Source of the DNA: Streptomyces albogriseolus
Lineage (GTDB): Bacteria; Actinomycetota; Actinomycetes; Streptomycetales; Streptomycetaceae
DNA: 64,000 bases
Assembly: GCA_014650475.1 (NCBI GenBank)
Contig: BMVA01000004.1
Coordinates: 62,001-126,000, forward strand
Direction: 5' to 3'
Shown: piece after piece, positions 3,960-16,174 of the stretch
Numbering within the stretch: position 1 is the stretch's first letter
Layout of the letters: each line of letters opens with the position of its first letter
Notes under the pieces: generated by a model
Told to the model about the DNA's origin: nothing
Seen by the model: only the letters and a program-made list of their open reading frames with translations
Database searches by the model: none
Position numbers and translations under genes: made by a program

Positions 3960-4057
3960 TGGGACCGCTTCCAAACAAGTGCCGGCAGCGCGCCAACTAT
4001 TGACAGTTCATCAGCCCGCCCACACGATTGGGACCGCTTCCAGTGGGAGCGCTCCCA
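3960..4057. promoter_or_regulatory. Triple CebR-type operator and GH6 promoter
   Basis: TGGGAGCGCTCCCA at 4044-4057 is a perfect 14-bp palindrome and matches the published CebR box exactly. Two identical 12/14 variants, TGGGACCGCTTCCA, lie at 3960-3973 and 4029-4042. A promoter TTGACA (4000-4005), 17 bp, CACGAT (4023-4028) lies between them, so the two right-hand boxes cover the start region and the left box lies near the divergent repressor gene. Confidence 0.85.
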
Positions 4058-4087
4058 AGCACGCCTCCTCCGAATCGAGGTACTGTC

Positions 4088-5053
4088 TTGAGCCGCAGAC
4101 TCCGCACCCTGATGGCAGCGCTCTGTGCCCTGCCGCTGGCGTTCGCCGCCGCACCCTCCGCCCACGCGGCCGACCCCACCACCATGACCAGCGGGTTCTA
4201 CGTGGACCCCGACTCCAGCGCGAAGAGGTGGGTGGCCGCCAACCCCGGTGACGGCCGGGCCGCCGCGATCAACGCCTCCATCGCCAACACCCCGATGGCC
4301 CGCTGGTTCGGCTCCTGGAGCGGGACCATCGGCACCGCCACAGGCGCCTACGCCGGGGCGGCTGACCAGCGGGACAAGCTGCCGATCCTCGTCGCCTACA
4401 ACATCTACAACCGCGACTACTGCGGCGGCCACTCCGCGGGCGGAGCCGCCTCGCCGTCCGCCTACGCCAACTGGATCGCCCAGTTCGCCGGCGGGATCGC
4501 GGGCCGCCCGGCCGTCGTCATCCTCGAACCGGACTCCCTCGGGGACTACGGCTGCATGCCCCAGGCCCAGATCGACGAACGCGAGGCCATGCTCACCGGC
4601 GCCCTCGCCGAGTTCAACCGCCAGGCCCCCAACACCTGGGTCTACATGGACGCCGGGAACCCGCGCTGGGCCGACGCGGCGACCATGGCCCGGCGTCTCC
4701 ACGAAGCCGGCCTCCGACAGGCCCACGGCTTCTCGCTCAACGTCTCCAACTACATCACCACCGCCGAGAACACCGCCTACGGCAACGCCGTCAACAACGA
4801 ACTGGCCGCCCGCTACGGCTACACCAAGCCCTTCGTCGTGGACACCAGCCGCAACGGCAACGGCACCAACGGCCAGTGGTGCAACCCCTCCGGCCGCCGC
4901 ATCGGTACGCCCACCCAGAAGGGCGGAGGCGCCGAGATGCTCCTGTGGATCAAGACGCCGGGCGAGTCCGACGGCAACTGCGGTGTCGGAACCGGCTCGA
5001 CGGCCGGCCAGTTCCTCCCCGAGGTCGCCTACAAGATGATCTACGGCTACTGA
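4088..5053 (+). CDS. GH6 endoglucanase (secreted cellulase, catalytic domain only)
   Basis: Cleaves beta-1,4-glucan by the inverting GH6 mechanism, outside the cell. TTG at 4088 is the likely start: GAGGT lies 6 nt upstream, and it opens a signal peptide (SRRLRTLMAALCALPLAFAA, cleavage near SAHA-A). GH6 motifs are RDYCGGHSAGG (about 108-118), VILEPDSLGDYGC with the catalytic acid Asp148, WCNPSGRRIG, and LLWIKTPGESDG near the end. At 321 residues it is only the catalytic domain. There is no CBM2 and no Pro/Thr linker, as in short Streptomyces CelA-type enzymes. The three CebR boxes upstream predict induction by cellobiose or cellotriose. Confidence 0.93.
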   Translation: MSRRLRTLMAALCALPLAFAAAPSAHAADPTTMTSGFYVDPDSSAKRWVAANPGDGRAAAINASIANTPMARWFGSWSGTIGTATGAYAGAADQRDKLPILVAYNIYNRDYCGGHSAGGAASPSAYANWIAQFAGGIAGRPAVVILEPDSLGDYGCMPQAQIDEREAMLTGALAEFNRQAPNTWVYMDAGNPRWADAATMARRLHEAGLRQAHGFSLNVSNYITTAENTAYGNAVNNELAARYGYTKPFVVDTSRNGNGTNGQWCNPSGRRIGTPTQKGGGAEMLLWIKTPGESDGNCGVGTGSTAGQFLPEVAYKMIYGY

Positions 5054-5112: not shown

Positions 5113-6264
5113 TCAGGCCGGAGCCGTGTCGTAGGTCCAGCGCAGGAGGGCGCCCAGGCCGCCTGTCGGAATGTCCGTGGCGTCCGCACCGTCCTCGTCC
5201 GCCGGGGGGACGACCAGGACGTCGGCGGCGGTGACGGCGGCTGCGCGCAGCAGTGCGTCGTCCGCGCGCACCGGCGTAGGATCGCTCTCCCCCAGGGTCC
5301 GGGCGTCGCTCCGGCGTGCCGCTACCTGGTCGGGCCGGGCGCCCACCCAGGTCTCACGGTCCAGTTCTGGTCCGTCGGGCCGGACGAGCAGCGTGTCGAT
5401 GCGGTGTTCCCGGGCCGCTTCCACCAGCGCCGGGATGCCTTCCACCGCTTCCGTGGGCCGGTCGGCGCCCACGCGGCCGGCGCGGAAGCGGTCGAGCGCC
5501 TCCTCGACACGGTGACGCGTGTGCCGCCGCCGGGCCTGCTCTATGGCCTCCTCCAGCGCGGGGGAGGCGGACCCGGCGGCGCGACCGCCGTGTTCGGTCT
5601 CCGTCGTGACCCGGCGGACCGCTTCGGAGAGCTTCTCGTGCACGGCCGGCCGCTCGCGGGGGTCACCGACCAGGACGACCAGGTCGGCACCGGACTCCTC
5701 GTAGGCCGCGTTCAGCGCTTCGGCGATCTCACCGGCGTTGTGCTCCCAGGTGTTCTCGACCTTGAGCTGGAAGTGCCGCTCGGACCAGTCGGACGAAGCC
5801 GTGCGGTGCACGGGGTGTCGCTCCCCCTCGACCTGTCCCGCGGGCCGCGGACCGGCCGCCCCGCGCAGTTCGAGGTCGGCGCCCGTCCGGTCGATGTACG
5901 CCACGAGGCAGACGGGGTCCTGACCCGCCAGTTCCAGCAGCGGCGTCAGCCGGGGCAGCGGGGCCCAGCAGCTGATCTGCCGCCGCGGGGGGCGGGAGAG
6001 CCGGTGGCTGAGCACCACCTCGCCCCCGGCCGCGAAGACCACACGGCCCGCCGGGTCCTCCGCCGGCCCGATCCGCAGCAGAGCGTCACGCACCGCTTCC
6101 GTGGTGGCGGCGTCGGCACCCTCCTCCTCGAGCGTCCGGCACGCTTCGCGCACGGACAGCTCACGCCGCTTGGCACCCGACTCGTCGTTCTGCAGGGGGT
6201 CGAAGTACACGGTGGCCCACGGGCCCGGGCGGTCGAAGAGCGGTTGCAGGAAAGACAGCTGCAC
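5113..6264 (-). CDS. Rv2629-like protein (bacterial eRF1-like, baeRF family)
   Basis: Resembles mycobacterial Rv2629, a dormancy-regulon protein with a fold related to archaeo-eukaryotic release factor eRF1. Its biochemical role is unknown. The GTG at 6264 has an excellent ribosome site (GGAGGAAAA) and starts VQLSFLQPLFDRPGPW. A central VCLVAYIDRTGADLELRG strand pair and the C-terminal DTLLVRPDGP / DVLVVPPADEDG blocks are typical of the family. The protein has 383 residues, close to Rv2629. Divergent from it is a two-CBS protein like Hrp1, another member of the same mycobacterial regulon, so joint stress or low-oxygen induction is plausible but inferred. Confidence 0.8.
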   Translation of the reverse strand: MQLSFLQPLFDRPGPWATVYFDPLQNDESGAKRRELSVREACRTLEEEGADAATTEAVRDALLRIGPAEDPAGRVVFAAGGEVVLSHRLSRPPRRQISCWAPLPRLTPLLELAGQDPVCLVAYIDRTGADLELRGAAGPRPAGQVEGERHPVHRTASSDWSERHFQLKVENTWEHNAGEIAEALNAAYEESGADLVVLVGDPRERPAVHEKLSEAVRRVTTETEHGGRAAGSASPALEEAIEQARRRHTRHRVEEALDRFRAGRVGADRPTEAVEGIPALVEAAREHRIDTLLVRPDGPELDRETWVGARPDQVAARRSDARTLGESDPTPVRADDALLRAAAVTAADVLVVPPADEDGADATDIPTGGLGALLRWTYDTAPA

Positions 6265-6451
6265 TTTTCCTCCTTCGGTCCGTTGCCGGCCGGGTGCCCG
6301 AAGCGGCGCGGGAGACACACGGGAACCCGGTGACGAGAAGGCGGGGAGGGAGCCGTTACCAGCCGTAGCGCTTGGGAACCCACGTCGCATCCGCTCAATC
6401 GCCGCCCCCGGCCCGCGTGCGGGAGGCGGCAACACCGAAGAAGGGAAGTCC

Positions 6452-6868
6452 ATGACCAAGGCGCGAGACATCATGACCGGCGGAGCCGAATGCGTCGGCG
6501 CCGAGGAGACGGTGCTGGACGCGGCACGCAAGATGAAGGACCTCGGGGTCGGCGCCCTGCCGATCTGCGGCACCGACAACAGGCTGAAGGGTGTCCTGAC
6601 CGACCGGGACATCGTGGTGAAGGTCCTGGGTGCCGGCAAGGACCCGGCCACCTGCCCGGCCGGCGAACTGGCCCAGGGCGAGGCCGTCACCATCGGTGCC
6701 GACGACGACGTGCGGGAGATCCTGCGCACCATGTCCGCGCACAAGGTGCGCCGCCTGCCGGTGATCGACGGGCACGACCTGGTCGGCATGGTCGCTCAGG
6801 CCGATGTCGCCCGCTCCCTGCCCGACCCCCAGGTCGGTGATCTGCTGCAGGCGCTGTCCACCGGCTGA
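6452..6868 (+). CDS. Tandem CBS-domain protein, Hrp1-like
   Basis: Small soluble protein of 138 residues made almost only of two CBS domains (about 6-62 and 72-128), the modules that bind adenine nucleotides. The motifs DIMTGGAECV, LKGVLTDRDIV and VRRLPVIDG are clear. The ATG at 6452 has AAGGGAAG upstream. Length and the paired CBS layout match mycobacterial Hrp1 (Rv2626c). It is divergent from the Rv2629-like gene across 187 bp, which contains two direct GGGAACCC repeats (6321-6328 and 6374-6381) that could be half-sites of a shared regulator. No full DosR-type palindrome was found. Confidence 0.88.
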   Translation: MTKARDIMTGGAECVGAEETVLDAARKMKDLGVGALPICGTDNRLKGVLTDRDIVVKVLGAGKDPATCPAGELAQGEAVTIGADDDVREILRTMSAHKVRRLPVIDGHDLVGMVAQADVARSLPDPQVGDLLQALSTG

Positions 6869-7115: not shown

Positions 7116-8540
7116 TCAGGGCAGGAGTGGTCCCGTGGTGAGGGGGAGGACGGCCCCGCCCGCGATGCCGAGGAGGAGGGAGGCGGCGCCCGCGGTGTAG
7201 GCGGTGGCCGCGGACCAGCGGCCGGAGACGGCGAAGGCCCGGGCCGACGGCTCGGCGGGGGCGAGCCGGAACAGGGGAGCGAGCCAGCGCAGGTAGTAGA
7301 AGAGGGAAGCGACGGTGTTGGCGACGGCGAGCGCGGCGAGCCAGGTGAGGCCGCCGTCGACGGCTGCGCTGAAGATCTCCAGTTTCCCCAGGAAGACGCC
7401 GGTGGGCGGGGTGCCGACCAGGCCGAGGAGACAGACGACGAGGACGGCGGCGAGACCGGGGTGGCGGCGGGCGAGGCCGCGGTAGTCGCCGAGGGTGCGG
7501 GCGTGCGGGAGTTCGGTGACGACGGCGAAGGCGGCGAGGTTGGTGGCGGCGTAGGCGGCGAGGTAGAACAGCAGGCTCTTCTGGGCGAGGTCGGTACGGG
7601 TGGCGACGGCCAGGGCCATCAGGAGGTAGCCGACCTGGCTGATGGTGGAGTACGCGAGCAGGCGTGTGACGGAGCTCTGGAAGAACGCGGCCAGATTGCC
7701 CAGTGTCATGGTGACGGCGGCGATGACGGCCAGGAGCAGGGGCCAGTTGACGTCGGTGCCGGGCAGGGCCTGGTGGAGCAGGCGGAAGCCGGCGATCAGG
7801 CCGCCGATCTTGGGCAGGGTGGTGACGTAGGCGGCGACGGGGGTGGGGGCGCCCTCGGTGACGTCGGGGACCCAGAAGTGCGCGGGTGCCGCCCCCGCCT
7901 TGAACAGGAGGCCGGCCAGGACGCCGACGAGTCCGACGGCGACCAGCCCGTAGGCGGCGGCGGGCAGCGCGCTGTTCAGTTCGCGGTAGAGGGTGGCGTG
8001 GCCGGCCGCGTACAGGAGAGCGGTGCCGGCGAGCATGGCGGTGCCGAGCAGGGCGCCCATCAGGTAGTACTTCAGGGCGGCTTCGGTGCCGCGTGCGTCC
8101 TTGGCGTAGGCGGCGAGGGCGTAGGCGGGAATGCTGGCGAGCAGGTAGGCGGCGAACAGCGTCAGCAGGTCGTTCGCGCCGATCAGGGCCAGGGTGCCGG
8201 CCCCGGTGAGCAGGAGCAGCACCCAGTATTCGGTTTCGCGCTTGTGGCCGTGGACGGTTTCCACGGACATGCCGACGATCAGGAGCAGGGCGCCGAGGAC
8301 GGTCAGGCGGCCGAAGCCGGTGGCGGTGTCGACGGCGAACACGTCGGCGAAGACGGTCTGTTCACGGTCGGTGGCCATGGTGACGCCGGTGGCGACCAGA
8401 CCGGCCGCGCAGGCGGCTGCCGCCAGGACGGCGATGATCCACTGCTGTCGGCGGGGCAGCCAGGAACCGGCGAGCAGGCCGATGACGGCGGTGCCGAGCA
8501 GGGCGAGTTCGGGGACGAGGGCGGCGAGGTTCTCGTTCAC
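7116..8540 (-). CDS. nuoN: NuoN-like proton-channel subunit
   Basis: Antiporter-type membrane subunit of a complex-I-like assembly, with about 13-14 helices in 474 residues. The GTG at 8540 overlaps the nuoM stop by 4 nt (GTGA). The family core is clear: ANDLLTLF, EAALKYYLMGALL, and FKAGAAPAHFWVPDVTEGAP with the channel lysine. The stretch that normally reads LGLELLS, holding the essential TM5 glutamate, reads AAYLLAS here, so that Glu is replaced by a hydrophobic residue. It is the last gene of the operon. Function as a working pump is uncertain for that reason. Confidence 0.9.
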   Translation of the reverse strand: MNENLAALVPELALLGTAVIGLLAGSWLPRRQQWIIAVLAAAACAAGLVATGVTMATDREQTVFADVFAVDTATGFGRLTVLGALLLIVGMSVETVHGHKRETEYWVLLLLTGAGTLALIGANDLLTLFAAYLLASIPAYALAAYAKDARGTEAALKYYLMGALLGTAMLAGTALLYAAGHATLYRELNSALPAAAYGLVAVGLVGVLAGLLFKAGAAPAHFWVPDVTEGAPTPVAAYVTTLPKIGGLIAGFRLLHQALPGTDVNWPLLLAVIAAVTMTLGNLAAFFQSSVTRLLAYSTISQVGYLLMALAVATRTDLAQKSLLFYLAAYAATNLAAFAVVTELPHARTLGDYRGLARRHPGLAAVLVVCLLGLVGTPPTGVFLGKLEIFSAAVDGGLTWLAALAVANTVASLFYYLRWLAPLFRLAPAEPSARAFAVSGRWSAATAYTAGAASLLLGIAGGAVLPLTTGPLLP

Positions 8541-10042
8541 CGGGCCACCAGTTCGATCACCGTGCGGCTGGCGGGCTCGATGACGTCCAGCAGCCAGCGC
8601 GGCATGACGCCGATCACCAGGGCCACCGCCAGCAGCGTCACCGTCGGGAGGGTCTCGGTGCGTTCGAGGTCGCTGATACCGGCGGTGGGGATGGTGCTCG
8701 GCAGTCGCGGGACGCCGAGGAACATCGCGCGCAGGGCGCGCAGGAACAGGGCGGCGGTGATCAGGATGCCGGTCAGGGCGATGGCGGTGGCGACCGTCCG
8801 GGAGGCCAGGGAGCCGGTGAAGATCTGGAACTCGGCGATGAACCCGGAGAAGCCGGGAATGCCGATACTGGCGAACGCCGCGACGGCCGTGACGCCGGCG
8901 AACCGCGGGGCGTGCGCGGCCAGACCGGAGTAGGCGTCGATCGCGTAGGTCCGCCCCCGGTCGTGGAGCACGCCGGACAGCAGGAACAGGGCGCCGGTGA
9001 TCAGGCCGTGGCTGACCATCTGGGTGACCGCCCCGGTGACCGCGAGGGAGCGGGCTTGGGCGTCGGTGCCGGCCAGCGTCCCGGCGGCGCCGACGGCGAG
9101 GACGACGTACCCCATGTGGTTGACCGAGGTGTAGGCGATCATCCGTTTGAAGTCGGTCTGTGCCAGGGCGACCAGCGCCCCGTAGACCACGGAGACGGCG
9201 CCGACGACGACGAAGACCAGGGCGTACCGGCGCCAGCTGCCCGGCAGCAGGGGCATGGCGATGCGGACGAATCCGTAGGTGCCCATCTTCAGCAGGATCC
9301 CGGCGAGGATCGCCGAGCCGGCGGCGGGGGCGTCGGTGTGGGCGGGCGGCAGCCAGGTGTGGAACGGCACGGTCGGGGTCTTGACCGCCAGCCCGACGCC
9401 GATGGCCAGCAGCACGAGACCGGCGTACGGGCCGCGGCCGGCGAGCGGGTTGGCGCGGGTGAGGTCGACGAGGTCGAAGGTGTGGGGTTCGGCGGCGAGG
9501 TACAGGCCGATGAAGCCGAGCAGCAGCGCGAGCGAGCCGATGAAGGTGTAGAGGAAGAACTTCAGCGCCGCCGCCCTGCCCCGCTCGCCGTGGCCCCATC
9601 CGGCGATCACGAAGAACATGCCGACGATGGACAGGTCGAAGAAGACGAAGAACAGGATCAGGTCCTGCGCGACGAACAGGCCCAGGCTGACGGTCTGCAG
9701 GAACAGGAACAGACACACGTAACTGCGCACCCGCTGCCGCTCCTTGAGGGAGTACACGGCGACGGCGAGGAACAGCAGGCAGGTCAGCGCGACCAGGGGC
9801 AGGGACAGGCCGTCGACACCGACGTGGTAGCCGACCCCGGCGCCGGGGATCCACGGCACCCGCTGCCGGTACTGCATCCCCTCCCCCGGGTCGAAACCGG
9901 TCCATACGGCGACGACCAGGGCGAGGTCGACGGCGGCCGTGGCGATCCACACCCGGATGTACGCCCGGTCCGAGAGCGCCCGCGGCAGGAGCAGCAGGAG
10001 CACGCAGACCAGCAGGGGCAGGAACGTGACGACACTCAGCAC
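8537..10042 (-). CDS. nuoM: NuoM-like proton-channel subunit
   Basis: Membrane antiporter-like subunit of 501 residues and about 14 helices. It contains KTPTVPFHTWLPPAHTDAP (channel Lys and broken TM7 region), DFKRMIAYTSVNHMG, and ALKFFLYTFIGS. In TM5 the usual FFELMLVPMYF reads FFDLSIVGMFF: the essential Glu is Asp, a conservative change. The start lies 4 nt from the nuoL stop, and the end overlaps nuoN. The operon position L-M-N is the normal complex I order. Confidence 0.92.
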   Translation of the reverse strand: MLSVVTFLPLLVCVLLLLLPRALSDRAYIRVWIATAAVDLALVVAVWTGFDPGEGMQYRQRVPWIPGAGVGYHVGVDGLSLPLVALTCLLFLAVAVYSLKERQRVRSYVCLFLFLQTVSLGLFVAQDLILFFVFFDLSIVGMFFVIAGWGHGERGRAAALKFFLYTFIGSLALLLGFIGLYLAAEPHTFDLVDLTRANPLAGRGPYAGLVLLAIGVGLAVKTPTVPFHTWLPPAHTDAPAAGSAILAGILLKMGTYGFVRIAMPLLPGSWRRYALVFVVVGAVSVVYGALVALAQTDFKRMIAYTSVNHMGYVVLAVGAAGTLAGTDAQARSLAVTGAVTQMVSHGLITGALFLLSGVLHDRGRTYAIDAYSGLAAHAPRFAGVTAVAAFASIGIPGFSGFIAEFQIFTGSLASRTVATAIALTGILITAALFLRALRAMFLGVPRLPSTIPTAGISDLERTETLPTVTLLAVALVIGVMPRWLLDVIEPASRTVIELVAR

Positions 10043-10046
10043 AGGG

Positions 10047-11996
10047 CTACCTCACCAACAGCACGATCAGGACGAGTACGGCGAAGCCCACGGCGGCCTG
10101 GGCGTAGTACTGGTGCAGCAGCCCGGTCTGCGGCCGGCGTGCCGCCCGGCCCAGACCGCGGGCGCCGGCGGCGACCGCGTCCACGGCGGCGTCGATGCCG
10201 CCGTCGTCCACCCGCCGGGCGAGCCGGGCGCCGGCGAGCCCGCCGCGGGCGGTGTGCCGTACCGCGGCGTCGATGCCGTCGTCGTCCACCCGGCCGGCGA
10301 TCCTGGCCGTGGCGAGCCCGCCGCGCCCGATCTGGCGCACCGCGCCGTCGACGACGCGGTCGTCGAAGACGGCCAGGGCCCGCGCCAGCCCCAGGACGGG
10401 CCGTACCACCACCGCGTGCGCGGCCCGCTCCAGGTGCAGCCATCCCCGCGCCCATCGCACCACCGGACGCGGCACGGGCGCCGGGCGGGAGGCCCACCAC
10501 CAGGCCAGGCCCGCGGCGGCGAACGCGACTCCGGCGCTCAGGCCCACCTCCCACGGCTTCGGCGAGGGCTCGTCCGGCTGCCCGACCAGCCGTTTCAGCC
10601 AGGACGCCGGTCCGGGCAGGGCCAGCACCCCCAGCACGGCGGCGGCGAAGGTGAGAGCGAGCAGCGGGGCAGGGGTGGTGCGGGCGGTACGCCGGGTGCC
10701 GTCCCGCTCGGTGTCGTAGCCGGCCTCCGGGTCGTCGGGCAGCGGCCGGGTGACGTACCACAGGGCCTTGATGCTGTACACGGCGGCGACGGCGGCCGCC
10801 GCCAGCCCCACGGCGTACAGGCCGGTGCTCTCGGCGTACGCGGAGGCGAGCACCTCGTCCTTGGCCGCCCACAGCGACAGCGGCGGCAGTCCGGCGAGTG
10901 TCAGCGCGCCGACGGCGAAGGCGGTGCCGACCAGGCGGTGGGTGCGGGCGGCGCCGCGCAGGGCCGGCAGGTGCTTGGTGCCGAGCGCGGTCAGCCAGGC
11001 GCCGGCGGCGAGGAACAGCCCCGACTTCGTGGCGGCGTGCGCGACGAGCTGGGTGGTGCCGGCGGCGATGCCGCCGCTGCCCGCGGCCAGCACCATGAAC
11101 CCGAGCTGGGAGGAGGTGGACGCCGCGAGCAGTTGCTTCAGGTCCCGTTGCGCTACGGCGACCACGCCGAGGAGGAGCGCGGTGACGGCGCCGGTCCAGG
11201 CCACCAGCGGGCCGGCCCAGCCGGTGGCGGCCAGCAGTGGATGCAGGCGCAGCAGCAGGTAGGCGCCGGCGGCGACCATGGTCGCCGAGTGCAGCAGCGC
11301 CGACACCGGACTCGGGCCCTGCATGGCCCGCGACAGCCAGAACGAGAACGGCAGTTGCGCCGACTTGCCCAGCGCGGCCACGACCACTCCTCCGGTGATC
11401 ACGTGCAGCCATGGCGAGGTCGCGTCCGGGAGGGCCCGAAGGTCCAGCGAGCCGGCACCGCCGGCGATCGCCGCGCCGGCGGCCAGGTACAGGCCGAGGT
11501 CGGCGGCACGGGTGGTCAGGAACGCGGTGTCCGCTGCCCGTACCCGCTCCGGACGGCGCCACCAGTAGCCGATCAGCGCCCAGCTGGTGGCGCCCATCAC
11601 CTCCCAGGCCATCAGCAGCAGCGGCAGCGTGGTCGCCGTGACCGTGGCCAGCATGGACCCGGAGAAGACCAGCATCAGGCCGAAGAGCCGTCCCCGGTTC
11701 TCGTCCGGTCCGAACTCGCCTGCGGCGAAGGCCAGGACGGCGGTGGTGACCGCCGCCACCGTGACCACCATGAACGCCGACAGCCCGTCCACCGCCAGAC
11801 CCGCCCGCAGCCCGGCGAACAGCGGCGCGCTCGATCGAGGCCGGGCCACCGAGACGGCGACCGCCACACCGAGCGTCGCCACGGCCACCGCCACACCGAG
11901 AGCGGGAACGTGCCGGTCGTAGCGAACTCCCGTCACGCCCAGGACCGCTCCCGCGCCGAGGGGGAGGGAGATCAGCAGCCAGATCACCGCGCTCAT
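10047..11996 (-). CDS. nuoL: NuoL-like proton-channel subunit with repeated C-terminal segment
   Basis: Largest antiporter-like subunit (649 residues). WEVMGATSWALIGYWW keeps the TM5 glutamate, and GKSAQLPFSFWLSRAMQGP keeps the TM7 lysine and canonical NuoL loop, so the charge pair is intact. The C-terminal part, which in complex I forms the lateral helix and last transmembrane helix, contains a 26-residue unit repeated about three times (DGGIDAAV / DDDGIDAAV / DGAV) and ends in a final hydrophobic helix (FAVLVLIVLLV). Its ATG overlaps the nuoK stop (ATGA), suggesting coupled translation. Confidence 0.92.
   Translation of the reverse strand: MSAVIWLLISLPLGAGAVLGVTGVRYDRHVPALGVAVAVATLGVAVAVSVARPRSSAPLFAGLRAGLAVDGLSAFMVVTVAAVTTAVLAFAAGEFGPDENRGRLFGLMLVFSGSMLATVTATTLPLLLMAWEVMGATSWALIGYWWRRPERVRAADTAFLTTRAADLGLYLAAGAAIAGGAGSLDLRALPDATSPWLHVITGGVVVAALGKSAQLPFSFWLSRAMQGPSPVSALLHSATMVAAGAYLLLRLHPLLAATGWAGPLVAWTGAVTALLLGVVAVAQRDLKQLLAASTSSQLGFMVLAAGSGGIAAGTTQLVAHAATKSGLFLAAGAWLTALGTKHLPALRGAARTHRLVGTAFAVGALTLAGLPPLSLWAAKDEVLASAYAESTGLYAVGLAAAAVAAVYSIKALWYVTRPLPDDPEAGYDTERDGTRRTARTTPAPLLALTFAAAVLGVLALPGPASWLKRLVGQPDEPSPKPWEVGLSAGVAFAAAGLAWWWASRPAPVPRPVVRWARGWLHLERAAHAVVVRPVLGLARALAVFDDRVVDGAVRQIGRGGLATARIAGRVDDDGIDAAVRHTARGGLAGARLARRVDDGGIDAAVDAVAAGARGLGRAARRPQTGLLHQYYAQAAVGFAVLVLIVLLVR
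10191..10362. repeat. 78-bp repeat inside nuoL
   Basis: The string GTCGATGCCG recurs at 10191 and 10269, and a diverged form (CCGTCGACGACG) lies near 10345-10347, a period of 78 bp (26 codons). The repeats are diverged but in frame and encode an Ala/Arg/Gly-rich amphipathic unit just before the last NuoL helix. Confidence 0.65.
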
Positions 11997-12298
11997 CCCT
12001 TCAGCTCGTCGGCCATGTCGGTCATGTCGACCTGACGGGCGCGGTAGATCGCGGTGGTCACGGCGAAGCCCATGGCCATCTCCACCGCCATCGCGACCAC
12101 GGCCGCCACGATCACCACCTGGCCGCTCGGCGCCCCCGGGGCGAGGAAGTGCCAGAAGTCGGCGGCCGCGACGATGACGCCGCCGATCATCAGCTCGATC
12201 CCCATCATGATCATGACGATGGACTGCTGGGACAGCGCACCGAAGAGGCCGGTGGAGAACAGGCCCGCGGCCAGCACCAGGATCAGTTCGAAGGTCAC
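11993..12298 (-). CDS. nuoK: NuoK-like subunit
   Basis: Small three-helix membrane subunit (101 residues, usual family length). The GTG at 12298 overlaps the nuoJ stop by 4 nt. IVMIMMGIELMIGGVIVAA holds the conserved TM2 glutamate, and QVVIVAAVVAMAVEMAMGFA holds the TM3 glutamate, so both charged channel residues of NuoK are present. The end overlaps nuoL by 4 nt. Confidence 0.93.
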   Translation of the reverse strand: MTFELILVLAAGLFSTGLFGALSQQSIVMIMMGIELMIGGVIVAAADFWHFLAPGAPSGQVVIVAAVVAMAVEMAMGFAVTTAIYRARQVDMTDMADELKG

Positions 12299-12864
12299 CG
12301 GCCCACCCCTCCGCCGACCGGGTCCTCGGCCGGCCGTTGGTCGAGGTCGTCGCCGAAGCGGTCGTAACGGCCCCGGTGCGTGGCGAGGACGGTGGCGCCG
12401 ACCATGGTGGCCAGCAGCACGAACCCCAGGATGACCATGGTCAGCATCTGTTCGGTCATCAGCGCGCTGCCGACCTGGAAGGTCGTGTCCCGGGGCCGGG
12501 ACGCGGTGCGGTCCGGCCAGGGCACGAGGAAGATCCCGGCGACCAGCGCCGCGAAGACGGCGCCGCTGACGGCGAGCGCGCCGCGCTTGTTGTGCAGCAT
12601 CGACATCGGCATCAGACCTGCCGGGTTCATCATGTAGGCGATCATGAACACGGCCATGATCACCATCTCCATGACCATCATCAGCACGATGACCACGCCC
12701 AGGTAGGGCAGGCCGAGTACGGCCGTGACGCCGCCGACGCAGACCAGGGACGCCAGCAGCGAGAAGGTGACCCGGGCCATCGAGTTCAGCGTGAACACCA
12801 GCACGCCGAAGACCGGGGCGAGCACCCCGAGAGCCACCAGCAGCACGGTGTCGGTCGTGCCCAT
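12295..12864 (-). CDS. nuoJ: NuoJ-like subunit
   Basis: Five-helix membrane subunit (189 residues). The conserved TM3 block is present as YLGVVIVLMMVMEMVIMAVF, followed by FMIAYMMNP, with acidic and Met-rich character. The ATG at 12864 follows nuoH by 21 nt, and the 3' end overlaps nuoK. The charged tail (HRGRYDRFGDDLDQR) is probably cytoplasmic. Confidence 0.88.
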   Translation of the reverse strand: MGTTDTVLLVALGVLAPVFGVLVFTLNSMARVTFSLLASLVCVGGVTAVLGLPYLGVVIVLMMVMEMVIMAVFMIAYMMNPAGLMPMSMLHNKRGALAVSGAVFAALVAGIFLVPWPDRTASRPRDTTFQVGSALMTEQMLTMVILGFVLLATMVGATVLATHRGRYDRFGDDLDQRPAEDPVGGGVGR

Positions 12865-12885
12865 GACGCGGCCCCTCCCTCTGTC

Positions 12886-13815
12886 CTATCGGTGGAGATT
12901 CACCAGAGCCGGCACCAGGGCCTGCACGATCGTCAGCGGGATGAGCACCACCCAGGCGAACTCCACGTACCGGTCCGCGCGGACCACCGGCAGCCGCCGC
13001 GCCACCCACACCAGCAGACCGAGTACCAGCAGCGTCTTGACCAGCGACCATGCCCAGGACGGCAAGCCCGGCCCGGCCCCACCTCCCAGGAACAGCGGCA
13101 CGGCCATGGCCGCGCCGGACGCCAGCCACAGCCACCGGCCGGCCTGGAGCAGCAACCGGTCCGCCCCGGACACCTCGCCCAGGACACCGCCGGCCAGGTC
13201 GCGGCCCGCCGGATAGGCGAACGGGCCCAGGAAGCTGAACGCCAGCACACCGGCCAGATAGGCGGCGAAGGCGAGCGGCATCCACACCGCGTACCACAGC
13301 CCGTCCTGCGCGGCGGCGATGTCACCCACCCGCAGCGACTCGGCACCGGTGGCCGCGGAGATCAGCGCGAACATCAGCGGCAGCTCGTAGGCCAGGCCCT
13401 GAGCGAGGAACCGGTACCCACCGATCAGGGAGAACGCGGCGTCGGGTCCCCAGCCGGCCAGCCACAGCCCGGCCCAGGTCAGCACCTCCATGGCGTTGAA
13501 CCACACGACCCCGACCGACGGGTCGGCGACCACACGGCCGCCGAAAGGGACGACCAGCGTCGACAGCACCGCCGCCACCGGCACGGTCACCACCCCCGTC
13601 CGCCACAGCAGCCGGTCCTGGGCGGGTAGCCGCCGCGGCTGCGCCACCAGCGCCCGGGGCACTCCGAGAAACGGTCGGACCGCGCCGGCGACGCCTACGA
13701 GCCGGCCCGCGTCTCTCGCGTCCAGCACCGCGTTCCCGGCCACCGCCAGCGCCGCCAGGACGACCAGCAGTCCCGGAGCGGCCAGCAGCGTCCACCACGC
13801 CCCCGCCTCAACCAC
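12886..13815 (-). CDS. nuoH: NuoH-like membrane anchor subunit, diverged
   Basis: Eight-helix subunit that in complex I and membrane hydrogenases joins the peripheral arm to the membrane arm. It keeps LAGWGPDAAFSLIGGYRFLA and QGLAYELPLMFALIS, equivalent to the canonical LAGWSSNSKYALLGALRAAA and QMISYE blocks. The usual N-terminal loop GRYGPNRVGP, part of the quinone site, is absent: that region reads VRPFLGVPRALVAQPRR. The GTG at 13815 overlaps the upstream gene by 8 nt. Loss of the loop agrees with the missing quinone-module genes. Confidence 0.82.
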   Translation of the reverse strand: MVEAGAWWTLLAAPGLLVVLAALAVAGNAVLDARDAGRLVGVAGAVRPFLGVPRALVAQPRRLPAQDRLLWRTGVVTVPVAAVLSTLVVPFGGRVVADPSVGVVWFNAMEVLTWAGLWLAGWGPDAAFSLIGGYRFLAQGLAYELPLMFALISAATGAESLRVGDIAAAQDGLWYAVWMPLAFAAYLAGVLAFSFLGPFAYPAGRDLAGGVLGEVSGADRLLLQAGRWLWLASGAAMAVPLFLGGGAGPGLPSWAWSLVKTLLVLGLLVWVARRLPVVRADRYVEFAWVVLIPLTIVQALVPALVNLHR

Positions 13816-15088
13816 GCGCCACCTCCACCACGCCGCGGGAGACCAACTCGTCCGGGTCGGGGTCGAGACTGGCCACGACGAGGCGGGCGGCAGCCAGCTC
13901 GGTCCCCTCCAGCAACCGGGGCAGCAGCGCGATCAGGGCGGCCGACGGCGGATGTTCGGCACTCCAGGGACCGCGCGGGCTGTCCTCCACCGCCACATCC
14001 AGAGGCGCGGGGTCCTCCAGCCGCGGCAGGTCGCGCCGGATGTCGGCGAGCCACTGCCGGTAGCGGGAGGTCACATCCCCGCCGGCCCGCGCCGCCGGAC
14101 CCCCCACCCCGGCCTCCCGCGCCTTCTGCGCCGTGACGACGCCGATGCCGCGGGTCAGCCACGCCAGGGTGCGGGACCTGCCGACCCTGCGGGTGAAGCG
14201 CTCCAGCCGAGGGGCGACCGCGGCACGAGGCGCGCCGGACAGCAGGTCGTCCCGCAGCCGCCACGCCCGGACCGCCTCGGCGGGCCAGCCCGCCACCGCC
14301 AACAGCCGCCCCAGGCTGTCGAGATGCGCTGCCGCGCGCCGGCGCACCGCCTCCCCCACCGGCACCGGCTCACCCGAGGCCGCCCGGAGCCAAGGCTGCA
14401 CCCAGAAGGCTTCGGCCGCCGCGTCGTCAATGGGCCTTGCCGGTTCGTCGACGTCGACCCGCTGGACCACGTCGCCCTGCAGCACCAGGCGGACCGTCAG
14501 GCCCGCGGGCCAGTCGGCCAGGAGCGGCCCCAGCGGCAGATGCAGCTGGTCCAGCGTCAGGCCGTCACGGTCCGCCCCTTGCCCGGCCATCGGCAACCCG
14601 CCCGGCATTTCCGTCTGTCCGCCGCTGTGACCGCCGTGACCGCCGTGTCCTCTGTGGTCGCCGTGACCGTCGTGGCCGGGAGTCTGGTCATCACCTTCGT
14701 GCCGCTCCCGTGCGCCGTGATCTCCCTCCCGATGTCCGCCCGCGTCGGCCGGGGGCGCGGCCGACGCGTGCCGGACGGCCGGTGGACCGAGGAGGGCACG
14801 GCCGGCGTTCAGCGCGTCCTCCACCTCGTCAGCCGTGCGGGCGTGCACCCGGGCGCGCGGTGCGGGCATGTCCCGCCACAGCCGCTCCAGTGGCGTCCGC
14901 AGCTCCGGGAGGTCGGGACCGGCCACGAGGAGGAGATCGGCCTGCGCCGGAGTGGACGCCCGCGGCCAGTCGCGCGCTCTCAGCAGTCGCTCGGCGGCCA
15001 GCCGGACCGCTGTTCCGCCCGGCACGGCCGCCAGCAGCACGTGCGGTCGCGCCGCGGCGACACGCAGGGTCAGGCCGGTCAGGTCCAT
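13808..15088 (-). CDS. Cysteine-free NuoB-like / NuoD-like fusion with His-rich linker
   Basis: 426 residues in the operon slot of nuoB-C-D. Residues about 12-100 resemble NuoB: ADLLLVAGPDLPELRTPLER then LWRDMPAPRAR matches NuoB's VAGT..KMAPALR..YDQMPEPRYV. There is no cysteine anywhere in the protein, so cluster N2 cannot be bound. Residues 119-154 contain nine histidines in a Gly/Asp/His run. The C-terminal half resembles a decayed NuoD or hydrogenase large subunit (VEDSPRGPW, then LPRLLEGTELAAARLVVASL and DPDPDE). The ATG at 15088 overlaps nuoA by 10 nt. It may be a structural plug, metal-binding or regulatory subunit. Homology is inferred from short motifs only. Confidence 0.7.
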   Translation of the reverse strand: MDLTGLTLRVAAARPHVLLAAVPGGTAVRLAAERLLRARDWPRASTPAQADLLLVAGPDLPELRTPLERLWRDMPAPRARVHARTADEVEDALNAGRALLGPPAVRHASAAPPADAGGHREGDHGARERHEGDDQTPGHDGHGDHRGHGGHGGHSGGQTEMPGGLPMAGQGADRDGLTLDQLHLPLGPLLADWPAGLTVRLVLQGDVVQRVDVDEPARPIDDAAAEAFWVQPWLRAASGEPVPVGEAVRRRAAAHLDSLGRLLAVAGWPAEAVRAWRLRDDLLSGAPRAAVAPRLERFTRRVGRSRTLAWLTRGIGVVTAQKAREAGVGGPAARAGGDVTSRYRQWLADIRRDLPRLEDPAPLDVAVEDSPRGPWSAEHPPSAALIALLPRLLEGTELAAARLVVASLDPDPDELVSRGVVEVARG

Positions 15089-15429
15089 CGCAGCGCGCCC
15101 TCCCGCCACGCGTAGACGACCCCGCTGACGAGGACGGCGAGGAAGACGAACATCTCGATCACCGCGCTCGGCCCCATGGCGGAGATCACGCGCGTCCACG
15201 GGTACATGAAGACCATCTCCATGTCGAAGGCGAGGAACAGCATCGTCACCGTGTACCAGCGCACATGAAACCGGCTCACCGCGTGTTCCGTGGGCTCCAG
15301 CCCCGACCCGAACGGCGCCGCGTCCGCCGCCCCGGAACCGATCCGCGCCGCCCACGCCGCCCCGTACACACCGACGACGGCGATCAGGGCGATGCCGAGC
15401 AGCGACAGCGCCGCTGTCGTCCCGCTCAC
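15079..15429 (-). CDS. nuoA: NuoA-like subunit
   Basis: Three-helix subunit of 116 residues. FHVRWYTVTMLFLAFDMEMV followed by FMYPW is the conserved TM2 block of NuoA, with both acidic residues. The GTG at 15429 overlaps the stop of a 34-codon upstream reading frame by 4 nt and lacks its own strong ribosome site, so translational coupling is likely. Confidence 0.9.
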   Translation of the reverse strand: MSGTTAALSLLGIALIAVVGVYGAAWAARIGSGAADAAPFGSGLEPTEHAVSRFHVRWYTVTMLFLAFDMEMVFMYPWTRVISAMGPSAVIEMFVFLAVLVSGVVYAWREGALRWT

Positions 15430-15530
15430 ACGCCCTCACCCGGCCGGGCGGCGACCGAACGGCCGGGCCGGCCCGGCAGGATCAGGTTGCCGCGCGCCGC
15501 TTCGGCTGACGTCCTCTCACTCATGGCCAT
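15426..15530 (-). CDS. Small leader protein coupled to nuoA (34 aa)
   Basis: Short reading frame starting MAMSERTSAEAARGNLILPG and ending PGEGV. It is supported by a near-perfect ribosome site (AAGGAGG, 6-7 nt before the ATG at 15530) and a GTGA overlap with nuoA, the same coupling seen between other genes of this operon. I do not recognise the product. It has no transmembrane helix. It could be a real small subunit, or mainly a translational leader that delivers ribosomes to nuoA. A second ATG two codons later (15524) is possible. Confidence 0.55.
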   Translation of the reverse strand: MAMSERTSAEAARGNLILPGRPGRSVAARPGEGV

Positions 15531-16174
15531 GCGATGCCTCCTTGTGGCATGACTGGCGCGCCGCGTACCCCTGGGGTGTGGGGTGCACCGGGCATTCCTT
15601 CCAGGGCCATCCGGCCGCTCACGAGCCGGCCCGCGTGCGGTCGGGCGGCCGCGACCGGAAGTGAGGGGGGTTTGTGTCGGTCCGGGGAACCGGTCAGGGC
15701 GTCGCACGCGTCGCCCGGATCCGCGGACGGTGGCGCACTCCTCCGCGCGGCTGCTGTCGGCGTCGTGGCCGGCGTGGGGGCACAGGACCGCGGCGATCCT
15801 GGGGACGCGCTTGGTCAGTTCACCGGCTGTTCCTGCAACAGCCCGGCATCAGCGGACGCGGTAGCCCGGTCCACCCGCCCGGATCGGCGGAACAGGTATC
15901 GAGCGTGCCTTGACAGCAGTGGTCACGACGGAAGCCTCCAGCGGTGTCCAGCGACGGCCTATGCCGTCCACGTAGGGGTAACACCGCGCAGGACGCCGCA
16001 AACCGCCGAGCGCCCCGTCGACACCGCTCGGCCTCGGCCGTCGTCGGGGGGCGGTGAACCATCGGCGGGACACGCGCAGGCGCGCCTGCGCGTGTCCCGC
16101 GCGGCACCACGGGTACCCGAGTAGCACCACATCCCAGTACCAGTGAACGCGTTCCGTTCGAAGGGATGATCCGG
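15531..16174. other. Intergenic region of about 640 bp without a recognisable gene
   Basis: Between the nuo operon and the next small gene I see no reading frame with coding character, recognisable motif or ribosome site on either strand. It should hold the nuo promoter. Notable elements are a short hairpin (GACGGC / GCCGTC around 15953-15967) and a 36-bp perfect palindrome at 16065-16100. Confidence 0.6.
16065..16100. repeat. 36-bp perfect palindrome
   Basis: Starts GCGGGACACGCGCAGG, and its right half is the exact complement. As RNA it forms a 16-bp stem with a 4-nt loop. It lies in non-coding DNA 75 bp before a small membrane-protein gene. There is no U-run, so it could be a Streptomyces-type terminator for upstream transcription or a protein-binding site. 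Confidence 0.8.

What the first reader, a model, noticed from the sequence alone, without database searches (positions are those of the whole stretch)
7116..15530. Complex-I-like membrane arm operon with no electron-input module
Eight overlapping genes give NuoA, a B/D-like fusion, H, J, K, L, M and N, but no NuoE, F, G or I, and no intact B, C or D. NuoH lacks the GPNRVGP loop of the quinone site. Without iron-sulfur subunits the complex cannot move electrons in the known way. It may be an ion transporter, couple to an unknown soluble partner, or use pre-existing subunits from the main complex I. This is the best candidate for an undescribed system in the window.
Basis: partly seen in the sequence, partly recalled or inferred. 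Interest (0 to 1): 0.82.

Follow-up and report, generated by a model that had tools for sequence, protein, structure and literature searches.

The report
Copper-linked, redox-dead complex I relative
A soil bacterium carries a cut-down relative of the respiratory enzyme complex I that has lost its electron-carrying parts and gained likely copper-binding residues, and its relatives often sit among copper-resistance genes, which suggests that evolution turned a respiratory proton pump into a copper-handling machine.

Summary
In detail: an intact eight-gene operon nuoA-BD-H-J-K-L-M-N on the minus strand (7116-15429), with no B, C, D, E, F, G or I. The same order was found in 44 of 48 Streptomyces rows (three rows are duplicates) and on plasmids of other Actinomycetota and of Alpha- and Gammaproteobacteria. 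It is in print as a "partial nuo operon" credited with marine or osmotic adaptation, its second gene left hypothetical. That protein is a NuoB-like plus NuoD-like fusion (no Cys in the window copy) with a His-rich linker; in Rubrobacter the linker holds a Pfam heavy-metal-binding domain. NuoA, J and K carry invariant methionines beside conserved acids. In relatives the operon lies among copper genes (18 of 38 Streptomyces loci, 2 of 40 random regions; 17 of 21 plasmid loci viewed, two weakly), and CsoR-type operators precede nuoA in 13 of 47 rows against 1 of 376 controls. The window's own locus has no copper neighbour and a weak operator. Best reading: a copper-handling, redox-dead complex I relative, most likely a proton-coupled Cu(I) transporter. 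The copper link is well supported; transport is inferred. Ten library searches listed no paper making this link.

The parts
15079..15429 (-). nuoA-like gene (116 aa). Asp69/Glu71 kept; Met70, Met72 and Met75 around them; His49 and His55
   Evidence: PF00507 E 3e-27. In 55 sequences: M72, M75, H49, H55 55/55, M70 48/55, D69 52/55
13808..15088 (-). BD gene (426 aa): NuoB-like domain, His-rich linker, NuoD-like domain; no cysteine
   Evidence: 0 Cys in the window copy; NuoB match over 43 columns, E 5e-6; the 50 Foldseek hits listed (of 476) are all complex I, NDH-1 or formate-hydrogenlyase entries, best E 2e-3
14789..15088 (-). NuoB-like domain, residues 1-100, without cysteines
14600..14779 (-). 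His-rich linker, residues 104-163; the site of the heavy-metal-binding domain in Rubrobacter relatives
   Evidence: Sequence; pLDDT under 50; PF19335 in relatives
13811..14599 (-). NuoD-like domain, residues 164-426, eroded
   Evidence: Sub-threshold PF00346 in the window; over cut-off in some relatives
12886..13815 (-). nuoH-like gene (309 aa), quinone-site motifs lost
   Evidence: PF00146 E 4e-41; motif counts
12295..12864 (-). nuoJ-like gene (189 aa)
   Evidence: PF00499 E 3e-14
12592..12681 (-). Met-rich third helix and following loop of NuoJ (residues 62-91): M62, M63, M67, M70, M74, M78, M79, M87, M89, H91
   Evidence: Each invariant in 56 of 56 sequences; core motif in 63 of 64 and in 0 of 27 canonical NuoJ
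11993..12298 (-). nuoK-like gene (101 aa). Glu35 and Glu73 kept; M29, M31, M70, M74 gained
   Evidence: PF00420 E 4e-11; E35 56/56, E73 55/56
10047..11996 (-). nuoL-like antiporter subunit (649 aa), main proton-path residues kept
   Evidence: PF00361 E 6e-52; E132, K211, H320, K324, K379 55/55
8537..10042 (-). nuoM-like antiporter subunit (501 aa), TM5 Glu replaced by Asp136
   Evidence: TIGR01972 479.7 bits, over cut-off; Asp in 55/55
7116..8540 (-). nuoN-like antiporter subunit (474 aa), TM5 Glu replaced by Leu133
   Evidence: PF00361 E 1e-54; Leu in 54/55
15566..15580 (-). CsoR-operator-like sequence 151 bases before nuoA; 12 of 15 positions match, weak on its own

Best explanation
The operon encodes a copper-handling relative of complex I that no longer does redox chemistry. 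SHOWN by sequence: BD stands in the place of NuoB and NuoD, and the window copy has no cysteine to hold Fe-S clusters; NuoH has lost its quinone-site motifs; L and M keep their main proton-path residues, with one Glu to Asp change in M; A, J and K have gained invariant methionines around the conserved acids; BD or the NuoJ tail carries a His/Met-rich segment or, in some relatives, a heavy-metal-binding domain; relatives often sit in copper gene clusters and some have CsoR-type operators. INFERRED: cytosolic Cu(I), brought perhaps by a CopZ-like chaperone, is bound by the BD linker on the cytoplasmic face, enters the former quinone cavity, and passes along the Met-lined A/J/K region; proton flow through the L, M and N antiporter-like modules drives it out of the cell. 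Probability that it acts in copper handling is about 0.85; that it is a proton-coupled Cu(I) transporter, about 0.5. The confidence given is for the full statement.
For: (1) Met content is raised only in A (5.8 against 2.8%), J (9.7 against 2.0%) and K (9.2 against 4.4%), and is lower than canonical in H, L, M and N (only 3 canonical sequences each for A, L, M, N). Met columns are invariant in 56 rows from two phyla (46 Streptomyces rows with three duplicates, and 10 of the 15 plasmid loci then viewed), and the motifs hold in 8 Rubrobacter-family loci. (2) PF19335 heavy-metal-binding domain over cut-off in four of four Rubrobacter-family BD proteins scanned; in three of them PF00346 is over cut-off in the same protein, in the fourth just under. 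The HMBD motif is in 11 of 13 such loci. (3) HMA domain within 15 kb of BD in 10 of 38 Streptomyces genomes (0.56 expected), DUF305 in 14 of 38, one of them under cut-off (0.42 expected); around the ordinary nuo loci of 12 of these genomes I saw none within 30 kb (searches compared by eye). (4) Copper-type genes in 18 of 38 Streptomyces loci against 2 of 40 random regions of the same genus sample (16 against 2 for HMA, CsoR, multicopper oxidase or DUF305 alone), and in 8 of 8 Rubrobacter-family loci. (5) On plasmids, copper or heavy-metal genes beside the operon in 17 of 21 loci viewed, 15 of them clearly, with CsoR, CueR, CopB, CopD, copper-type ATPases and multicopper oxidases. In R. tropicus a heavy-metal ATPase, a metal-sensitive (CsoR-type) regulator and a copper-ion-binding protein precede nuoA on the same strand with a 73-base gap. 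(6) CsoR-type operator, at least 12 of 15 positions, before nuoA in 13 of 47 Streptomyces rows (11 of 44 without duplicates) against 1 of 376 controls. (7) NuoM of this type forms one clade, 99/97 support.
Against: The window's own locus has no copper-type match in the first 22 kb of the window, about 7 kb on either side, and no HMA or DUF305 match within 30 kb. Its operator has 2 mismatches to TACCCCNNNGGGGTA, a level hardly above control in this genome (175 against 139). 20 of 38 Streptomyces loci and 4 of 21 plasmid loci show no copper gene in the stretch examined, and only 2 of 9 plasmid loci tested have an operator of 12 or more. NuoN has lost its TM5 Glu, so one proton path may be dead. 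The Met residues lie on one face of NuoJ helix 3 only at P 0.03 with one residue left out, and P 0.15 with all seven. Some of the 18 counted loci rest on matches that may not be copper-specific: an ATPase with TPC instead of CPC (L050) and a 27% oxidase match (L073). Nothing shows transport, direction or substrate. Genomes and plasmids are related, so the P values are too small.
Confidence: 0.5

Rival explanations
1. Copper-gated proton or cation channel, or pH/ion-balance valve: copper binding to BD, J and K opens or closes the proton paths of L, M and N to protect the cell during copper stress, without moving copper itself.
For: Metal-binding residues sit beside, not instead of, the conserved acids of A and K. 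The machine keeps full-length antiporter modules L and M, more than a metal channel should need. Copper context as above.
Against: A valve would not obviously need a tail with most of 35 His residues, or two metal domains in one protein. The methionines reach along a whole helix and its loop.
Confidence: 0.2
2. Sodium/proton or osmo-adaptation pump, as published: the membrane arm alone exchanges Na+ or H+ and helps life in seawater.
For: Stated for Salinispora, Kocuria and Streptomyces (passages read). Many plasmid hosts seen here come from marine samples. L, M and N are antiporter homologues.
Against: In the passages read, the published case rests on strain origin, phylogeny, annotation and faster growth on seawater media of whole strains. 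It does not explain the invariant Met, the heavy-metal-binding domain, the copper neighbours or the CsoR-type operators. Some carriers come from soil or sputum. One paper itself notes a carrier from copper-rich mine fluid.
Confidence: 0.1
3. Copper-redox proton pump: Cu(I) or Cu(II) bound to BD replaces the Fe-S clusters, and oxidation of Cu(I), perhaps handed to a multicopper oxidase, drives proton pumping.
For: Multicopper oxidases are recurrent neighbours, once directly upstream of nuoA. BD sits where the electron-input subunits sat.
Against: No conserved electron acceptor or quinone site is apparent. The linker is low-confidence in the model (pLDDT under 50), varies in length, and the His-rich part can sit on the NuoJ tail instead.
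Confidence: 0.07
4. A decaying duplicate of complex I carried along in copper islands without a function of its own.
For: Broken copies exist: L083 has only A and BD fragments, with a stop inside the BD match; in the Pseudarthrobacter plasmid an IS3 element lies within the BD region; the Ornithinimicrobium annotation lists only part of the operon.
Against: 44 of 48 rows complete, three more cut by contig ends; dN/dS 0 to 0.44; invariant columns across phyla.
Confidence: 0.03

Closest known systems
Partial NDH-1 operon 2 of Salinispora / partial nuo operon of Kocuria flava and Streptomyces SM17, SM18
   Same: Same gene order: nuoA, hypothetical protein, nuoH, J, K, L, M, N (order stated in the passages). 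Very probably the same system; I could not compare Salinispora sequences.
   Different: Read there as a marine or osmo-adaptation proton or sodium pump. In the passages read the hypothetical protein is not identified and no copper role is given to this operon, though the Kocuria paper lists extra copD genes in a separate cluster.
Respiratory complex I (Nuo, NDH-1)
   Same: Homologous A, H, J, K, L, M, N and B/D-like domains
   Different: No B, C, D, E, F, G or I as such, no cysteine in the window BD, quinone-site motifs lost, Met/His residues gained
Energy-converting hydrogenase-related (Ehr) complexes (recalled)
   Same: Complex-I relatives whose catalytic large subunit has lost its metal ligands
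   Different: Ehr is thought to keep other electron-transfer subunits; here none is encoded in the operon
Mrp antiporters and DabA/DabB (recalled)
   Same: NuoL/M/N-type modules used without redox chemistry
   Different: Neither has NuoA, H, J or a B/D-like fusion
CopA P1B-ATPase and CusA-type exporters (function recalled)
   Same: Copper export, the role proposed here; CopA-type ATPases are recurrent neighbours
   Different: Unrelated folds; ATP-driven or RND-type

Membership tests
Respiratory complex I | NuoB with cysteine ligands for cluster N2 | tested here: not met
   Window BD has 0 Cys; no NuoB match in the window at E 1e-4
Respiratory complex I | NuoC/D/E/F/G/I electron-input and connecting subunits | tested here: not met
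   No E. coli CD, E, F, G or I match in the 64-kb window at E 1e-4; the genome's first nuo locus has them, its second has CD and I but not E, F, G
Respiratory complex I | Quinone-site motifs of NuoH | tested here: not met
   0 of 56 sequences have a GPNRVG-like loop or ETNRAPFDLPE-like motif; their link to the quinone site is recalled
Complex I superfamily, membrane arm | NuoA, H, J, K, L, M, N homologues in one operon | tested here: met
   All over Pfam cut-off; in NCBIfam only NuoM is over a cut-off among the rows shown
Complex I superfamily, membrane arm | Proton-path acids and lysines | tested here: inconclusive
   Kept in A, K and mostly L; Asp for Glu in M; TM5 Glu lost in N; several NuoH acids lost. 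The functional labels of these residues are recalled
Published partial nuo operon (marine adaptation) | Order nuoA, hypothetical, nuoHJKLMN | tested here: met
   against the order stated in PMC6676996
Published partial nuo operon (marine adaptation) | Sequence relationship to the Salinispora genes | not tested
   No Salinispora sequence was fetched
Copper-resistance gene cluster | Known copper genes beside the operon | tested here: not met
   Not met in the window or within 30 kb for HMA and DUF305; met in many relatives
Copper-resistance gene cluster | Control by a copper sensor | tested here: inconclusive
   Operator-like sites enriched in relatives, weak in the window; binding not tested
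Heavy-metal-binding domain protein (PF19335) | HMBD over Pfam cut-off in BD | tested here: inconclusive
   Met in four of four Rubrobacter-family proteins; no match in the four other BD proteins or in the window
Metal transporter | Demonstrated metal transport | not testable with these tools
   Needs an experiment

The most novel reading that the evidence does not exclude
A complex I whose electron-driven half was lost and replaced by metal-binding parts, so that the membrane arm became a proton-coupled Cu(I) transporter spread by plasmids across Actinomycetota and Pseudomonadota: the first copper-handling branch of the complex I superfamily that I know of.
Probability: 0.5. Interest if true: 0.93.

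Novelty: new variant of a known kind. Interest (0 to 1): 0.82.

Why it matters
How redox energy reaches the distant proton channels of complex I is a long-standing question. A natural version in which the redox part has been replaced by metal-binding parts, while the channels are largely kept, would let the coupling between the A/J/K/H region and the L/M/N modules be studied without electrons or quinone. It would also add a new kind of copper defence that travels on plasmids, including plasmids of Mycobacterium, and would correct the annotation of genes now named NADH-quinone oxidoreductase subunits, as well as the published marine-adaptation reading.

Tried and rejected
Recalled idea that S. 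coelicolor SCO6954-SCO6961 is this operon: dropped. Four papers hold one of the tags searched, all for SCO6960 or SCO6961; by title three are on polyamines and one on FluG (not opened). Borrowed subunits from the main complex I: judged unlikely because BD fills the place of B and D. Decayed duplicate: rejected, though broken copies exist. Comparison of BD with E. coli NuoCD was not significant (E 0.075); the NuoD label rests on Pfam hits in relatives and on weak fold hits. The Foldseek result is weak (model pLDDT 56, no hit under E 0.001). The helix-face test for NuoJ gave P 0.03 or 0.15 depending on one residue. The window's own operator is not remarkable genome-wide. In one search, 51 of 296 genomes matched at E 1e-3; I count 40 (E 1e-20 or better), the other 11 being weak. 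I left G092 (broken copy) and G281 (contig end) out of the 38 genomes. In one search matches to CueR, BlaI and F510 queries were not counted as copper genes; the CueR query hit 3 of 40 random regions and none of the 38 loci. L083 and L084 were left out. The column counts used 10 of the 15 plasmid loci then viewed; one of the ten (Pseudarthrobacter) has an IS3 element in its BD region. The neighbour clustering used a crude gene filter and served only as a lead. In one search the dN/dS script stopped with an error at the third relative, so only two are reported. Ten paper searches listed no paper that by title or start of abstract links this operon to copper; most listed papers were not opened, and the library lacks most subscription journals. 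Passages were read in six papers.
Full report
WHAT IS THERE. The window's minus strand carries eight intact, mostly overlapping genes, nuoA-BD-H-J-K-L-M-N, at 7116-15429. Seven products pass Pfam cut-offs for complex I membrane subunits; the second, BD, has only a weak Complex1_49kDa match. tblastn of the E. coli subunits against the whole window finds no B, CD, E, F, G or I at E 1e-4. The genome has three NuoH genes. One lies in a complete nuo locus, and one in a second locus in which E, F and G were not found, so ordinary complex I is present elsewhere.

CONSERVATION. A scan of genome contigs gave seven Streptomyces loci, each with matches to all eight genes in the same order, some matches partial. 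In 296 Streptomyces genomes, BD is found in 40 at E 1e-20 or better (51 at E 1e-3, of which 11 are weak and uncounted). In an earlier set it was found in 5 of 37 genus members, the window's genome included, and in none of 24 others but for one weak hit near the threshold. Of 48 rows (the window and 47 fetched loci), 44 have all eight genes in order, three are cut by contig ends (L073, L079, L084) and one, L083, is broken. Three pairs of rows are the same locus fetched from two collections (L005 and L085, L007 and L055, L008 and L050; contig lengths agree). dN/dS against two close relatives is 0 to 0.44 over 16 gene comparisons.

THE SECOND GENE. Window BD has no cysteine; among 46 Streptomyces BD rows longer than 300 aa, 4 have none and the others 1 to 7. 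Its N-terminal part aligns with E. coli NuoB over 43 columns (28% identity, E 5e-6). Comparison with E. coli NuoCD is not significant, but PF00346 is over cut-off in the Halomonas protein and in three of four Rubrobacter-family proteins. A profile of 13 BD proteins also gave many hits at E 1e-7 to 1e-9 confined to about positions 32-120, mostly 41-85, the NuoB-like stretch; I take these for ordinary NuoB but did not open them. The AlphaFold model is confident only in parts (mean pLDDT 56; blocks above 70 in both domains; linker under 50). The 50 Foldseek hits listed, of 476, are all entries of complex I, NDH-1 or formate hydrogenlyase, the best at E 2e-3. Between the two domains lies a His- and often Met-rich linker of variable length. 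In the Rubrobacter family the linker holds a heavy-metal-binding domain: motif in 11 of 13 loci, PF19335 over cut-off in four of four proteins scanned. In three proteobacterial plasmid loci (of three) the stretch between the domains is not His-rich, and NuoJ carries a His-rich tail instead, with 9, 19 and 35 His in the protein.

THE MEMBRANE ARM. I compared 55 or 56 sequences of this type (three duplicates included; 10 of them from plasmids) with canonical ones: 26 or 27 for J and K, 8 or 9 mostly partial for H, and only 2 or 3 for A, L, M and N. Met content is raised in A, J and K and lowered in H, L, M and N. In NuoJ, eleven Met columns and one His column are invariant in 56 of 56, and the position of E. 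coli Tyr59 is Met in all 56. A core Met motif is in 63 of 64 NuoJ sequences, Rubrobacter family included, and in 0 of 27 canonical ones; the exception, L073, differs in the last position of the motif. The NuoK motif MxMMGxE is in 64 of 64 against 0 of 27, and the NuoA motif in 64 of 65, the exception being cut by a contig end. The Met residues flank acids that are kept: Asp69/Glu71 in A, Glu35/Glu73 in K. Of the NuoL residues checked, nine are kept in 52 or more of 55 and one His is Gln in 48 of 55; one further position was not conserved in canonical NuoL either. NuoM has Asp for its TM5 Glu in 55 of 55, and Lys161 in 48 of 55; NuoN has Leu for its TM5 Glu in 54 of 55. In NuoH one Glu is kept in 53 of 56, while other acids are lost or reversed in charge. 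NuoH has lost the GPNRVG-like loop and the ETNRAPFDLPE-like motif in 56 of 56. The functional meaning of the E. coli residues is recalled.

COPPER CONTEXT. In 38 Streptomyces genomes, an HMA domain lies within 15 kb of BD in 10 (0.56 expected) and DUF305 in 14, one of them under cut-off (0.42 expected). Either is found in 18 of 38; the window's genome is not among them. Genomes are related, so these chances are only a guide; that DUF305 goes with copper genes is recalled. Around the ordinary nuo loci of 12 of these genomes I saw no such match within 30 kb (by eye). A tblastn with copper proteins taken from the plasmid loci finds at least one of nine kinds in 18 of 38 Streptomyces regions (16 if only HMA, CsoR, multicopper oxidase and DUF305 count), 8 of 8 Rubrobacter-family regions, 5 of 7 contig-scan regions (three of the seven duplicate regions among the 38), 2 of 40 random regions of genomes in the same sample, and 0 in the first 22 kb of the window. 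In five Streptomyces loci the neighbouring P-type ATPase has the CPC motif; in three other rows, two of them one locus, it has SPC or TPC. In seven of eight Rubrobacter-family regions a CsoR-like gene and an HMA gene lie upstream of nuoA on the same strand; the eighth has the CsoR-like gene only (with a length filter, counts HMA in six).

PLASMIDS AND SPREAD. NuoJ finds 18 plasmid records: Mycobacterium, Pseudonocardia, Arthrobacter, Pseudarthrobacter, Curtobacterium, Rhodococcus, Gordonia, Ornithinimicrobium, Halomonas, Acuticoccus and Roseivivax. I viewed 15 of the 18, with 14 to 16 kb of flank where the record allowed. Copper or heavy-metal genes are annotated there in 12; of these, Ornithinimicrobium has only DUF305 and a heavy-metal regulator. 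Rhodococcus, Gordonia and Pseudarthrobacter have none by annotation, and the Pseudarthrobacter BD region holds an IS3 element. Several records are close relatives of each other. A Rubrobacter BD finds 162 plasmid records, most of them probably through the metal domain alone. I viewed 6 of the 12 listed; all 6 have the full operon, and 5 have copper or heavy-metal genes in 9 to 11 kb of flank, Paracoccus only a heavy-metal ATPase; Thioclava has none. The unnamed family f27 is Rubrobacteraceae, since two of its contigs have the exact lengths of named Rubrobacter plasmids. In 396 Actinomycetota genomes, 111 matched the BD profile at E 1e-6; by my reading 17 are of the full BD type, 18 of the Rubrobacter type, and the other 76 are short hits. 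A NuoM tree puts 25 sequences of this type in one clade with 99/97 support, apart from the three ordinary NuoM included; the ordinary ones are long branches, of which the tool warns.

REGULATION. The S. lividans CsoR operator consensus is published (PMC3902906, passages). The best 15-base match in 300 bases before nuoA reaches 12 or more in 13 of 47 Streptomyces rows (11 of 44 without duplicates) against 1 of 376 control upstream regions; in the window's clade it is 9 of 17 rows (7 of 14 without duplicates), and on plasmids 2 of 9. The window's site scores 12 of 15. In this genome, exact sites stand beside three HMA places, which supports the pattern, but sites with up to two mismatches are hardly above control (175 against 139), so the window's own site is only suggestive. 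The genome has seven CsoR-family matches, one with a stop inside.

HOW IT LIKELY WORKS. The parts that moved electrons are gone; the parts that move protons are largely kept; what was gained is soft-metal ligands where the redox part used to meet the membrane arm. The simplest account is a proton-coupled Cu(I) transporter, most likely an exporter given its company. The copper role is supported by four lines (residues, domain, neighbours, operators); transport, coupling and direction are inference. A copper-gated proton valve is the main rival.

WHAT IS KNOWN. Penn and Jensen 2012 (PMC3314556, passages), a 2018 Kocuria study (PMC6002675, passages) and a 2019 Streptomyces study (PMC6676996, passages) describe a partial nuo operon for marine or osmotic adaptation. 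The last gives the same order with a hypothetical second gene and notes a carrier from copper-rich mine fluid. None of the passages read identifies the second gene or gives the operon a copper role. I file it as a new variant of the complex I superfamily, not as complex I, since defining features of complex I were tested and not met.

Noticed in passing
Conservation not checked.
   Followed up: no
L126, L127 (NuoJ C-terminus): NuoJ of two alphaproteobacterial plasmid loci has His-rich C-terminal tails (19 and 35 His in the protein), as if the metal-binding segment could sit on either subunit.
   Followed up: partly
L051 and L085: One Streptomyces genome (G179) carries two copies of the operon on different contigs, their proteins 59-97% identical to the window's depending on gene and copy.
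   Followed up: no
L083: A broken copy: only nuoA and BD fragments remain, with a stop codon inside the BD match.
   Followed up: no
L125: On a Pseudarthrobacter plasmid an IS3 element lies within the BD region while the other seven genes are annotated as complete.
   Followed up: no
L116, L130: On Mycobacterium avium and M. intracellulare plasmids the operon lies near a heavy-metal ATPase, an HMA protein and a nocobactin-type synthesis gene (nbtC).
   Followed up: no
L017 (own genome contig C7): The genome's second nuo locus has A, B, CD-like, H, I, J, K, L, M, N but no E, F or G match: another complex I form without the NADH module.
   Followed up: partly
own genome contig C13: Contig C13 holds seven of the eleven HMA matches, four of the seven CsoR-family matches, three of the eight DUF305 matches and five of the eleven exact CsoR-type sites: a large copper region on another contig than the window.
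   Followed up: no
window 6101-6868 (+): A CBS-domain protein gene converges on nuoN; a GH6-like cellulase lies at 4028-5053 (both named by eye).
   Followed up: no
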